Shown: in pieces, positions 5,574 through 8,093 of the stretch | Position numbering within the stretch: position 1 is the first letter of the stretch | How the letters are laid out: each line of letters starts with the position of its first letter | NCBI GenBank assembly: GCA_902765035.1 | Contig: CACWYF010000016.1 | Span: 1-11,567, forward strand | From: an uncultured Eubacteriales bacterium | Lineage (GTDB): Bacteria > Bacillota > Clostridia > Peptostreptococcales > Anaerovoracaceae | DNA length: 11,567 bases | Direction of reading: 5' to 3' | Translations under genes and position numbers: made by a program | Notes under the pieces: generated by a model | Seen by the model: the letters and a program-made list of their open reading frames with translations, nothing else | What the model was told of the DNA's origin: nothing | Database searches by the model: none

Positions 5574-6890
5574 ATGATCAAAATACTGAAGTTTGCGGAA
5601 CTGACTCCGGCGGAGATCTTCTCGAGATCTGAGCCGGTCATGGATGTTTCCGGCACGGTGACTGAGATAATAAATGATGTAACAGAAAACGGCGATGCTG
5701 CGCTGGTGCGTTATGCGGCGAAGTTCGACGGGATCGATCCGGAGGGATTCGTTCTCGAGCTCTCTGAAGAGGAAAGAGCGGCGGCTCTGAAGAAGATAGA
5801 AGAGACTGATCCGGGATTCACTGACATCCTGGCAAAAGCGGCTGCCAATATCGTGAAGTTCCACACTAAACAGGTCAGGAACAGTTTCATCATAAACGAT
5901 ACTCCGGGAATCATCATGGGGCAGAAGGTGGTCCCTCTCGAGAGAGCCGGGCTGTATGTACCTGGCGGCACTGCGGCATACCCTTCCACCGTGCTGATGG
6001 ATTCCATACCGGCACTCATAGCAGGATGCAGTGAGATCATCATGGTAACACCTCCTGATGCGGACGGCAGCATCAATCCTGCCATAATCGCCGCAGCTCA
6101 GGCTGCGCGCAATGCAGTCAGCGGAGCCGGTGAGGTGCGCATCTTCAAGACCGGAGGCGCCCAGGCTATAGCGGCGCTTGCATACGGCACGGAGACCATT
6201 CCGAAGGTGGACAAAATAGTCGGCCCGGGCAATGCTTTTGTGGCAGAGGCTAAAAGGCAGGTGTTCGGCAGAGTATCCATAGACATGATCGCAGGACCGA
6301 GCGAGATACTCGTAGTATCCGACGGCAAGAGCGATCCTGAGGTAGTTGCGGCAGACATGCTGTCGCAGGCAGAGCATGATAAGAACGCCAGCGCGGTCCT
6401 CGTTACAGACTCAGCTGAACTGGCATCTGCCGTACAGCAGGCCATCGAGAAGCAGCTCGCGACACTTGAGCGTGAAGCGATCGCAAGGCCGTCAATAGAC
6501 AACAACGGCAAGATCATAGTAGCTGAGAACCTCGAGCAGGCAATAGAGATATCCAATGAGATAGCACCTGAACACCTCGAGCTCTGCGTAGATGACCCGT
6601 TTGAATGGCTTGGCAAGGTAAAGCACGCAGGCTCCATCTTCCTGGGCAGGAACTGCCCGGAGGCGCTCGGAGACTATTTTGCAGGACCTAACCACACACT
6701 TCCGACGAGCGGCACGGCAAGATTCTCAAATCCACTTTCAGTCGATGACTTCGTCAAGAAGATGCAGTACACTTATTACACAGGAAATGCACTGGCAGAA
6801 GTGGCAGAGGACATCGCGGGATTCGCCCGCAAGGAAGGTCTGACAGGACATGCACGCAGCGTGCTCATCCGTTCCGGTAAAAAACACTAA
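5574..6890 (+). CDS. hisD: histidinol dehydrogenase
   Basis: HisD is the last enzyme of the pathway; it oxidises L-histidinol to L-histidine in two NAD-dependent steps with a zinc ion. The 438-residue length is normal. Recognisable blocks are VPLERAGLYVPGGTAAYPST (120-139), KTGGAQAIAALAYGTE (192-207), VGPGNAFVAEAKRQVFGRV (216-234), the signature IDMIAGPSEILVV (236-248), and GDYFAGPNHTLPTSGTARF (366-384). The expected zinc ligands Q265 and H268 (SQAEHD), D367 and H426 (GLTGHARS) and the catalytic pair E333-H334 (APEHLEL) are all present. AAGGGG at 5561-5566, 7 nt before the ATG, is the ribosome binding site. It follows hisG by 14 nt; downstream lies the structured element that separates it from hisC. 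Confidence 0.97.
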   Translation: MIKILKFAELTPAEIFSRSEPVMDVSGTVTEIINDVTENGDAALVRYAAKFDGIDPEGFVLELSEEERAAALKKIEETDPGFTDILAKAAANIVKFHTKQVRNSFIINDTPGIIMGQKVVPLERAGLYVPGGTAAYPSTVLMDSIPALIAGCSEIIMVTPPDADGSINPAIIAAAQAARNAVSGAGEVRIFKTGGAQAIAALAYGTETIPKVDKIVGPGNAFVAEAKRQVFGRVSIDMIAGPSEILVVSDGKSDPEVVAADMLSQAEHDKNASAVLVTDSAELASAVQQAIEKQLATLEREAIARPSIDNNGKIIVAENLEQAIEISNEIAPEHLELCVDDPFEWLGKVKHAGSIFLGRNCPEALGDYFAGPNHTLPTSGTARFSNPLSVDDFVKKMQYTYYTGNALAEVAEDIAGFARKEGLTGHARSVLIRSGKKH

Positions 6891-6899
6891 CCATATAAA

Positions 6900-7003
6900 A
6901 GACTCAGAGTTTCCGGTATGCACTGCGAATATTCCGCAGGGATCTGCCGGGCCCAGGAAAGGTCCCGAGGACGTGAGCAGGGTATACCGGAAACTCTGAG
7001 TCT
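6900..7003. repeat. 104-nt branched palindromic element between hisD and hisC
   Basis: The arms 6900-6919 and 6984-7003 are perfect reverse complements over 20 bp (core GACTCAGAGTTTCCGGTAT), extended by a G-U and a C-G pair. Within the 60-nt interior, CTGCG (6923-6927) pairs with CGCAG (6935-6939). CTGC (6944-6947) pairs with GCAG (6977-6980), enclosing CGGG/CCCG and CC/GG steps around an AGGAAA loop (6955-6960). The predicted fold is a long stem topped by two hairpins. It starts 9 nt after the hisD stop codon and ends just before the hisC ribosome binding site. No T run follows on the plus strand, so it is not a terminator in the operon's direction; on the minus strand a short TTTTAT follows. 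No target-site duplication is evident. It may be a structured RNA, an mRNA processing or stabilising element, or a small MITE/REP-like repeat. Confidence 0.8.
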
Positions 7004-7022
7004 CAAAGAGGACACAGAGATT

Positions 7023-8093
7023 ATGAGTAAGTTTCTTAGCAGTAAATACGCATCACTTGAACCGTACACTCCGGGCGAGCAGCCGAAGACTCAGGTGCTG
7101 ACCAAGCTTAACACCAATGAGTCGCCGTTCCCGCCTGCACCTGAAGTGGTCAGTGCGGTGAAGGAGGCCGCAGAGAATCTGCAGCTGTATCCGGATCCTG
7201 ACTGCACGGAGCTGCGCAAGGCGATAGCAGCAGTGCAGGGAGTTGACCCTGATGAGATCATCTGCAACAACGGTTCTGATGAGACGATATATTTTGCATT
7301 CCTCGCATACTGCGACAGTGGAAAGCCTGCTGTTTTTCCTAAGATCACATACGGCTTCTACCCGGTGTTCGCGGATATAACGGGAGTGAAATACAGGGAA
7401 GTTCCGCTGAAGGAGGACTTCAGCATCGACCCTGAAGACTACTATGATGCAGAGGGCACGGTGTTCATCGCCAACCCTAATGCACCGACGGGCATCCCGC
7501 TGAGCCTTGATCAGATCGAGGGCATCCTTCAGCACAACAGGGACAATGTGGTCGTGATCGACGAGGCCTATGTCGACTTCGGGACAGAGTCTGCTGTGCC
7601 GCTGGTGGCAAAATACGATAACCTGCTCGTAGTGCAGACTTTCTCCAAGTCGCGTTCGATGGCGGGCATGAGGCTCGGATACGGAATAGGCAATAAGGAG
7701 CTGATCGCTGACCTCAACGCGCTGAGGTTCTCGACCAACCCGTATAATATAGACAGGCTCGCGATCGCAGCTGGCATAGCATCTCTTGAGCACGATGAAG
7801 TGAACAGAGAGCACTGCAGAGCTGTCATGGAGAACAGAGAGTACACAGTGGAGGAGCTCGGCAAAATGGGGTTCGAAATGACCCCGTCCACAGCGAACTT
7901 CATATTCGTAAGGCATCCTGAAGTACACGGATCAGTACTGTTCCGCAGGCTGAGGGAGCGCGGAGTCATCATAAGGCACTGGGACAAGCCGGAGCTGGCT
8001 GACTACAACAGGATAACGATAGGATCGCGTGAGCAGATGGATATTCTGCTCAGAGAGGTAAAGGACATTCTTTCTGAGGAGGTGGCAAAATGA
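7023..8093 (+). CDS. hisC: histidinol-phosphate aminotransferase
   Basis: HisC is a PLP-dependent class I/II aminotransferase that converts imidazole acetol phosphate and glutamate to histidinol phosphate and 2-oxoglutarate. From ATG 7023 it has 356 residues, the usual length. Key segments are [12 protein letters not shown] (29-40), [12 protein letters not shown] (82-93), [11 protein letters not shown] (150-160), [10 protein letters not shown] (178-187, with D180 and Y183) and [15 protein letters not shown] (206-220), where K209 is the PLP lysine and R217 binds the cofactor phosphate. The frame stays open back to an ATG at 6918, but that lies inside the palindromic element, has no ribosome binding site and adds 35 residues foreign to the family. 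AGAGGA at 7007-7012 supports 7023. Its stop overlaps the hisB start as ATGA, with a strong AGGAGGT inside its 3' end. Confidence 0.95.

What the first reader, a model, noticed from the sequence alone, without database searches (positions are those of the whole stretch)
6900..7003. 104-nt branched palindromic element inside the his operon
Seen: two 20-bp arms that are perfect reverse complements enclose a 60-nt interior that itself splits into two hairpins, so nearly the whole gap between hisD and hisC is paired. A 20-bp perfect match is far beyond chance for a 130-nt spacer. It is not a terminator in the operon's direction, does not match the T-box or other riboswitch consensus sequences I know, and the interior shows no promoter. 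Inference: it could be a new structured RNA acting as a processing or stability element that sets hisC-IE levels apart from hisZGD, or a REP/MITE-like dispersed repeat that landed between genes.
Basis: partly seen in the sequence, partly recalled or inferred. Interest (0 to 1): 0.72.

Follow-up and report, generated by a model that had tools for sequence, protein, structure and literature searches.

The report
Dispersed palindromic element with private arms
The hairpin between two histidine genes is one copy of a scattered DNA repeat whose short central core is nearly constant but whose long flanking arms differ at almost every place it occurs, which points to an unusual kind of small mobile palindrome rather than a histidine-specific RNA switch.

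Summary
The inverted repeat is real: 20 bp perfect, 27 bp with two mismatches, fold z = -8.7. It folds as one unbranched hairpin with internal loops. It is not particular to the his operon: the draft host genome (68% complete) has 21 matches and two sister species 27 and 15. They share a core, GARTATTCCGCAG-hairpin-CGAGGACGYGA or a variant, but the outer arms are private to the site. Between sites the arms are 24-48% identical per position, yet mostly Watson-Crick paired. At the same site in sister species, 20 of 30 comparisons show at most 2 of 44 arm bases changed. Copies sit just 3' of genes, in both orientations. Sister species show clean absences, core-less remnants (including one sister's his site) and in-place inversions. 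I conclude it is a REP/MITE-like dispersed mobile palindrome, unusual because the centre, not the ends, is conserved. No mobilising enzyme was found. A his-specific regulatory RNA is not supported; a more general transcript-level role is not excluded.

The parts
5574..6890 (+). hisD (histidinol dehydrogenase), upstream neighbour; stop codon at 6888-6890
   Evidence: ORF, Pfam PF00815 E 6.8e-166
6900..7003 (+). whole palindromic element, his-operon copy
   Evidence: matched by model R1 at 6905-6998, 83.8 bits (this copy is among the sequences the model was built from)
6900..6922 (+). left arm, private to this site; outer 20 bp perfectly complementary to the right arm
   Evidence: the outer arm matched only itself, its own reverse complement and a 75% match covering query 7-85 at C244
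6923..6926 (+). CTGC, inner end of left arm, common to many copies
   Evidence: alignment A1
6927..6939 (+). 5' strand of the conserved core, GAATATTCCGCAG
   Evidence: the third base is A in 12 and G in 14 of 26 aligned copies and pairs with T or C in the 3' strand accordingly
6939..6966 (+). inner hairpin, variable in sequence and length, stem kept by covariation
   Evidence: helix 2: 98.4% of cells paired, 4 of 5 pairs with changes on both sides
6966..6976 (+). 3' strand of the conserved core, CGAGGACGTGA
6977..7003 (+). right arm, complement of the left arm
7005..7012 (+). AAAGAGGA, likely ribosome-binding site of hisC, directly after the right arm
   Evidence: read from the sequence; inference
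7023..8093 (+). hisC (aminotransferase); the longer ORF start at 6918 lies inside the element and is unlikely, since relatives start at the equivalent ATG

Best explanation
The 104-nt hairpin is one member of a dispersed family of small, non-coding palindromic elements in this lineage of uncultured Clostridia. Each member has a nearly constant asymmetric core (GARTATTCCGCAG ... CGAGGACGYGA, or variants such as GAGAATCCCGCAG ... CGAGGACTCGA) that can fold on one strand through internal loops round a variable inner hairpin. The core sits in the middle of inverted-repeat arms, typically 20-30 bp, whose sequence is private to the site. Shown: multicopy; presence/absence differences between sister species; decay by partial deletion; in-place inversion; position just 3' of genes; both orientations; good vertical stability of the arms at most sites. 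Inferred: the core, folded as single-stranded DNA, is the recognition signal for an unidentified recombinase or transposase, and the arms are acquired or rebuilt at or after insertion and then kept as a stable hairpin. At convergent gene pairs the arms may also serve as terminators. In the his operon the copy is probably neutral or a mild mRNA-stability element without a his-specific purpose.
For: Copies: own genome 12 exact-core matches against 0 for the reversed-pattern control; model R1 finds 21 in G000, 27 in G015, 15 in G001, 7 in G023 and 1-2 in 7 more of 47 genomes of the genus. Arms private: per-position identity between sites 0.24-0.48 at positions 8-22 from the core (33 site representatives), with Watson-Crick pairing 0.91-1.00 at 13 of those 15 positions and 0.83-0.85 at two (only the 41 of 77 copies with gapless arms at least 75% paired were used, which raises the pairing figure). 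Arms stable by descent: of 30 same-site comparisons among the three sisters, 20 differ in at most 2 of 44 arm bases, while flanks in the 23 pairs measured differ by 0.8-13.8%. Sites 26, 53, 24 and 27 empty in one or both sisters; core-less hairpins at site 16 (G000, G001), site 73 (G001) and the his site (G001); one arm only at site 12 (G001). Element inverted in place between sisters at sites 9/13 and 8/15, and between G015 and G010 at 67/72. The same arms at two different sites of G015 (h2, h7) shows copying. A-run before the left arm in 8 of 12 convergent against 2 of 23 codirectional sites, Fisher p 7e-4.
Against: No transposase or recombinase is tied to the family and no coding (autonomous) version was seen. 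No target-site duplication was established. Orientation is not random: the nearest upstream stop lies on the element's right in 25 of 35 sites, p 0.017, which leaves room for a transcript-level role. The T-run on the other side is not enriched at convergent sites (4 of 12 against 4 of 23, p 0.40). Some absences are losses (site 12, his site of G001), so recent gain is not proved site by site. Ten of the 30 sister comparisons show 3 to 23 of 44 arm bases changed, five of them more than 10, so arms are not stable everywhere. In six comparisons with G023 or G030 the same intergenic position holds elements with 18-29 of 44 arm bases different, which could mean long retention for a function rather than repeated insertion.
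Confidence: 0.72

Rival explanations
1. A functional structured RNA (aptamer, ribozyme-like or protein-binding motif) dispersed in 3' untranslated regions: constant internal loops, free stems, strong covariation.
For: 27 of 32 pairs change on both sides, covariation score 0.640 against 0.209 in shuffles and at most 0.184 when slid; the R-Y pair inside the core exchanges G-C (14) and A-U (12); oriented bias 25 of 35, p 0.017.
Against: One of the five measures, further pair types, does not exceed the shuffles (64 against 65.5). Codirectional sites: 16 with the core strand antisense, 10 sense (p 0.33). Inverted in place between sisters at two sites. Transcript-strand wobble against A-C mismatches in distal arms 11:6, p 0.33: inconclusive. 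No match in 36 of 47 genomes of the genus at E 0.01 (stricter filters). No Rfam match at gathering score in the window; matches in seven other loci are below gathering.
Confidence: 0.12
2. The core is the mobile part and inserts into the loop of host terminator hairpins or other palindromes; the arms are host sequence.
For: Private arms that are stable at most sites; position 3' of genes; A-tracts at 8 of 12 convergent sites; a second hairpin inserted at one fixed point inside the core of several copies, empty in the G015 orthologue; core-less hairpins with the same arms in sisters at site 16; in G185 (another family of the order) six clustered copies share inner arms but have different, terminator-looking outer arms.
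Against: The empty sites 26, 53, 24 and 27 lack the arms altogether; the core-less hairpin at site 16 keeps inner-arm sequence typical of the family, and the G001 his hairpin is explained by deletion between CAGGG repeats (reading); h2 and h7 carry the same arms at two sites.
Confidence: 0.25
3. An ordinary REP element mobilised by a RAYT transposase.
For: Extragenic, palindromic, 3' of genes as REPs are (PMC3733652, abstract and passages); a 248-aa RAYT-like gene exists in G015 and a comparable PF01797 match in G001; G000 has four PF01797 matches in open frames of 155-195 aa.
Against: The nearest model match to the G015 gene is about 5.9 kb away; G023, 95% complete, has 7 copies and no PF01797 match; no constant tetranucleotide tag at the end of the palindrome, and the stems have unrelated sequences.
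Confidence: 0.1

Closest known systems
REP / BIME repeats (GTAG- and CGTC-tagged palindromes, Di Nocera et al. 2013, PMC3733652; abstract and 12 passages seen)
   Same: Extragenic palindromes in many copies, between codirectional and convergent genes, downstream of coding regions, complementary stem changes; some REP dimers sit inside longer palindromes.
   Different: REPs keep the stem by family (stems 5-13 bp) and carry an end tag; here the arms are typically 20-30 bp and private to the site, and the constant part is in the middle.
Bacterial MITEs such as Correia/NEMIS, RUP, ERIC, RPE (review Delihas 2007, PMC2229807; part 1 of 3 of the text read)
   Same: About 100-200 bp, non-autonomous, long stem-loop, mainly intergenic, empty sites in relatives; NEMIS transcripts proposed to be cut by RNase III.
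   Different: That review gives terminal inverted repeats for most families; here the inverted repeats are the variable part. 5'-TA termini and target duplications were not established.
Integron attC sites (recalled, no call)
   Same: Sequence-variable palindromes recognised by structure as folded single-stranded DNA with unpaired bases.
   Different: The conserved core is internal here; integrase, cassettes and attC core sites were not searched for.
Group II-C introns and other elements that target terminator hairpins (recalled, no call)
   Same: Position at or near terminators.
   Different: A ~100-nt non-coding element with no Rfam match in the window; the empty sites do not show a pre-existing hairpin with these arms.

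Membership tests
Dispersed repeat family | several non-orthologous copies in one genome | tested here: met
   21 matches in G000 on many contigs; 12 exact-core matches against 0 for the reversed-pattern control
MITE | conserved terminal inverted repeats | tested here: not met
   arm identity between sites 0.24-0.48 per position at positions 8-22
MITE | empty sites in close relatives | tested here: met
   sites 26, 53, 24, 27
MITE | target-site duplication | tested here: inconclusive
   no uniform short duplication seen by eye in the alignments; ends are hard to fix because the arms are private
REP/RAYT | GTAG or CGTC tag at one end of a 20-40 bp palindrome | tested here: not met
   by reading: CGTC occurs inside the core on the minus strand of type-A copies and is missing in type B (CGAGGACTCGA)
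REP/RAYT | flanks or accompanies a RAYT gene | tested here: not met
   no exact inverted repeat of 9 nt or more with a loop up to 80 nt in the 3.8-kb RAYT locus of G015; nearest copy about 5.9 kb away; G023 has 7 copies without PF01797
Known RNA family (Rfam 15) | match at or above gathering score | tested here: not met
   window; seven other loci only below gathering
Intrinsic terminator | GC-rich hairpin followed by a T-run | tested here: inconclusive
   not met in the his copy; across sites A-run on the left in 8 of 12 convergent and 2 of 23 codirectional, T-run on the right in 4 of 12 and 4 of 23
Phage or plasmid element | copies on phages or plasmids | tested here: not met

The most novel reading that the evidence does not exclude
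An 'inside-out' mobile element: the only conserved and recognised part is a structured core, and at each new site the element is embedded in, or builds (for example by snap-back copying of DNA), a new pair of long inverted-repeat arms. It therefore has no constant ends at all, and it occurs in at least two families of one bacterial order with the same plan.
Probability: 0.33. Interest if true: 0.82.

Novelty: new variant of a known kind. Interest (0 to 1): 0.58.

Why it matters
Small palindromic repeats are usually recognised by constant stems or ends. A family with a constant centre and private arms is easily missed by repeat finders. Its covariation could pass as a 'new structured RNA', so it is also a caution for covariation-based RNA discovery. 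If the arms are made anew at each insertion, this is a mode of DNA mobility that I do not know of, and it could be tested by following insertions in cultured relatives.

Tried and rejected
A his-specific regulator was rejected: copies lie beside other genes, and the 21 other spacers upstream of hisC that were printed lack the element (28 of 47 genomes matched the query region, some only by a 28-nt stretch).

Fast compensated mutation of the arms in place was my first idea. It was rejected as the main cause because 20 of 30 sister comparisons show at most 2 of 44 arm bases changed (4 further sister pairs dropped because one copy is cut by a nested hairpin; register shifts up to 4 nt allowed). 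An earlier count on a chosen 23 of the 39 pairs gave 17. Exceptions with more than 10 changes: h5/h30, h39/h58, h41/h47, h44/h47, h62/h69. Of 724 pairs treated as non-orthologous, 5 reach 0.8 arm identity: 3 are one pair of sites (h0-2 with h7), h8/h15 proved to be one site inverted, and h12/h17 remains.

Site counts (46 sites), the orientation count (27 of 37) and the A-run count (10 of 14) were made before inverted orthologues were recognised; (43 sites) replaces them. Genes were called by my own script, which misplaced hisC.

The wobble test was inconclusive: 11:6, p 0.33, on 41 of 77 copies; 36 were dropped for register or core-pattern reasons.

RAYT linkage was not found. A tyrosine-recombinase-like ORF beside three clustered copies in G185 (PF00589 E 1.3e-4, below the curated cut-off) has a relative only in G163 among 17 genomes searched, none in G000, G001, G015 or G023; it is not the family's enzyme. 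Rfam at relaxed threshold gave sub-gathering matches. The short pattern gives chance matches: 28 of 60 relatives, with control matches in several. Model R2 over 297 genomes of the order, with strict filters, hit 3 genomes outside the genus. In 391 genomes of the class the pattern matched 23 including the own one.

Literature: searches listed nothing that I recognised as this family. Apart from PMC3733652 and PMC2229807 only listings were seen.

Full report
What is there. Between hisD (stop 6888-6890) and hisC (ATG 7023) the window holds a palindrome at 6900-7003. Its arms 6900-6926 and 6977-7003 are 93% complementary, and the outer 20 bp are perfect. The RNA fold is -65.5 kcal/mol with z = -8.71. 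It is predicted as one long hairpin interrupted by internal loops, not a branched structure. No promoter-like or terminator-like site and no Rfam family was found there.

It is a family. A DNA search of the own genome (G000, 1.76 Mb in 304 contigs, 68% complete) found further matches mainly through the centre of the element. The pattern TTCCGCAN{10,40}GAGGACG gave 12 matches there and none for the reversed control. Each of the 12 is flanked by complementary arms, near-perfect in most and imperfect in a few (L011, L012, L015), and the arms are different sequences. An alignment of 26 copies and pair counting show 27 of 32 pairs with changes on both sides and 229 such cells against 78 in shuffles; one of the five measures, the number of further pair types, does not exceed the shuffles. 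The constant positions are the core strands GARTATTCCGCAG and CGAGGACGYGA. The core can be read as two internal loops (a tandem G-A step next to the outer arm, and GCA opposite GA next to the inner hairpin) with a covarying R-Y pair between them. The sheared G-A reading is recalled chemistry, not a tool result. Variants such as GAGAATCCCGCAG/CGAGGACTCGA, and copies with ordinary pairs in place of the G-A step, occur.

Distribution. Covariance model R1 found at least one match in 11 of 47 genomes of the genus: 21 in G000, 27 in G015, 15 in G001, 7 in G023, 2 in G016 and 1 each in six others. By contig numbers, lengths and positions G015 corresponds to OMZI01 (RUG099) and G001 to CAMIWY01, both uncultured Clostridia in the named collection (inference). 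A second model over 297 genomes of the order hit G306 and G321 (other genera of the family, one each) and G185 (another family). In the family of G185 (41 genomes) a pattern matched 11 places in G185, 2 in G197 and 1 in G176; the matches in four other genomes lack such arms or are a tandem repeat. By their folds 9 of the 11 G185 places have long complementary arms, one is imperfect and one weak; six clustered copies share inner arms but not outer arms. Not found: phages and plasmids. Viral contigs gave 8 matches without arms. From the wider pattern in viral contigs and 391 genomes of the class, the 22 strongest of 134 by arm energy were inspected and none is convincing.

Arms are private to the site and mostly stable. 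Among 33 site representatives, arm identity at positions 8-22 from the core is 0.24-0.48, while pairing is 0.91-1.00 at 13 of these 15 positions (only 41 of 77 copies, those with gapless arms at least 75% paired, could be used, so the pairing figure is favourable). Apart from one pair of sites (h2 and h7 of G015) shared arms between different sites were hardly seen. Among the three sisters, 20 of 30 same-site comparisons have at most 2 of 44 arm bases changed, 5 have more than 10; in six comparisons with G023 or G030, 18-29 bases differ. Gradual change is therefore usually slow, and the difference between sites must come from how copies arise, from replacement of one copy by another, or from great age.

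Gain, loss, decay and inversion. Sites 26, 53, 24 and 27 are empty in one or both sisters. Sites 16 (G000 and G001) and 73 (G001) keep a hairpin without the core, and site 12 in G001 keeps one arm. The his site of G001 keeps a short hairpin that fits a deletion between CAGGG repeats. The other 21 printed spacers upstream of hisC have no such element. At sites 9/13 (G015, G000) and 8/15 (G015, G001), and at 67/72 (G015, G010), the element is inverted relative to the neighbouring genes.

Context. I merged the 77 hits into 43 sites by flank similarity: 12 convergent, 26 codirectional (16 with the core strand antisense, 10 sense, p 0.33), 4 divergent, 1 unknown. Genes were called by my own codon-score script, so single cases are uncertain. 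In the four main genomes (37 sites) the right-hand end lies a median 12 nt from a stop codon and the left-hand end 49.5 nt; the nearest upstream stop is on the right in 25 of 35 sites (p 0.017). An A-run precedes the left arm at 8 of 12 convergent and 2 of 23 codirectional sites (p 7e-4), while a T-run after the right arm is not enriched (4 of 12, 4 of 23, p 0.40). So convergent copies look like terminators for the gene on their right, and operon copies such as the his one do not.

Interpretation. The best-supported account is a dispersed, non-coding, mobile or formerly mobile palindrome of the REP/MITE kind. Mobility rests on presence/absence, copying (h2/h7) and inversions. The recognition of a folded core by an enzyme is inferred, and no candidate enzyme held up: the RAYT-like gene is not linked, and a recombinase-like ORF beside the G185 cluster has no relative in the main carriers. 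It differs from MITEs with constant terminal repeats and from REPs with constant tagged stems (PMC2229807 and PMC3733652, read in part). The strong covariation is real but does not prove an RNA role, since the core strand is often antisense and inverts between sisters, and the wobble test is inconclusive (11:6, p 0.33). The oriented bias and the recurrence at equivalent positions in more distant species are the best arguments left for a transcript-level function.

For the his operon the element most likely has no specific role. It may stabilise the mRNA or help to cut it between hisD and hisC, as proposed for NEMIS with RNase III (PMC2229807), but nothing here tests that.

Noticed in passing
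G000:C46:19452-19588 (L232), G000:C59 (L233), G000:C7 (L234), G000:C106 (L235), G001:C25 (L280), G015:C12 (L265): A second, unrelated hairpin (about 45 nt, ATCRTAAGG..CCACCGCAAGCGGT..CCTTRYGAT) is inserted at one fixed point inside the core of several copies; the G015 orthologue L255 shows the empty state. A palindrome nested in a palindrome at one spot.
   Followed up: partly
L302 (G001:C205), L239 (G000:C146), L314 102-174: Another palindromic repeat beginning GGGGACGG occupies or surrounds the same site as one element copy and also lies on the PF01797 gene contig of G001; it may be the true RAYT-linked REP of these species (inference).
   Followed up: no
L313 1348-2094 (G015:C35): RAYT-like 248-aa Y1 transposase gene without flanking inverted repeats, between a ComF-like and a RecD-like gene (names from reading the sequences, not searched).
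   Followed up: partly
L495 (G185:C33:464500-482500): Six copies of the family within 14 kb in a bacterium of another family, with shared inner and different outer arms, three of them next to a divergent tyrosine-recombinase-like ORF (PF00589 E 1.3e-4, below cut-off) that also exists in G163, where the pattern found no copy.
   Followed up: partly
L277 (G001:C215) upstream of the element: A degenerate half copy with the arm of the G000/G015 element lies beside a different complete element at the same site, as if one element had replaced another.
   Followed up: no
L281 (G023:C13:55440 and 55793): Two type-B copies in opposite orientation about 350 bp apart with unrelated arms, in the spacer that holds one copy in the three sisters.
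   Followed up: no
L305 (G015:C35:27950-28800): The orthologue of the G001 copy at site 55 appears to be a core in the opposite orientation with a large insertion in its inner loop; G000 has only a small outer hairpin there (by eye).
   Followed up: no
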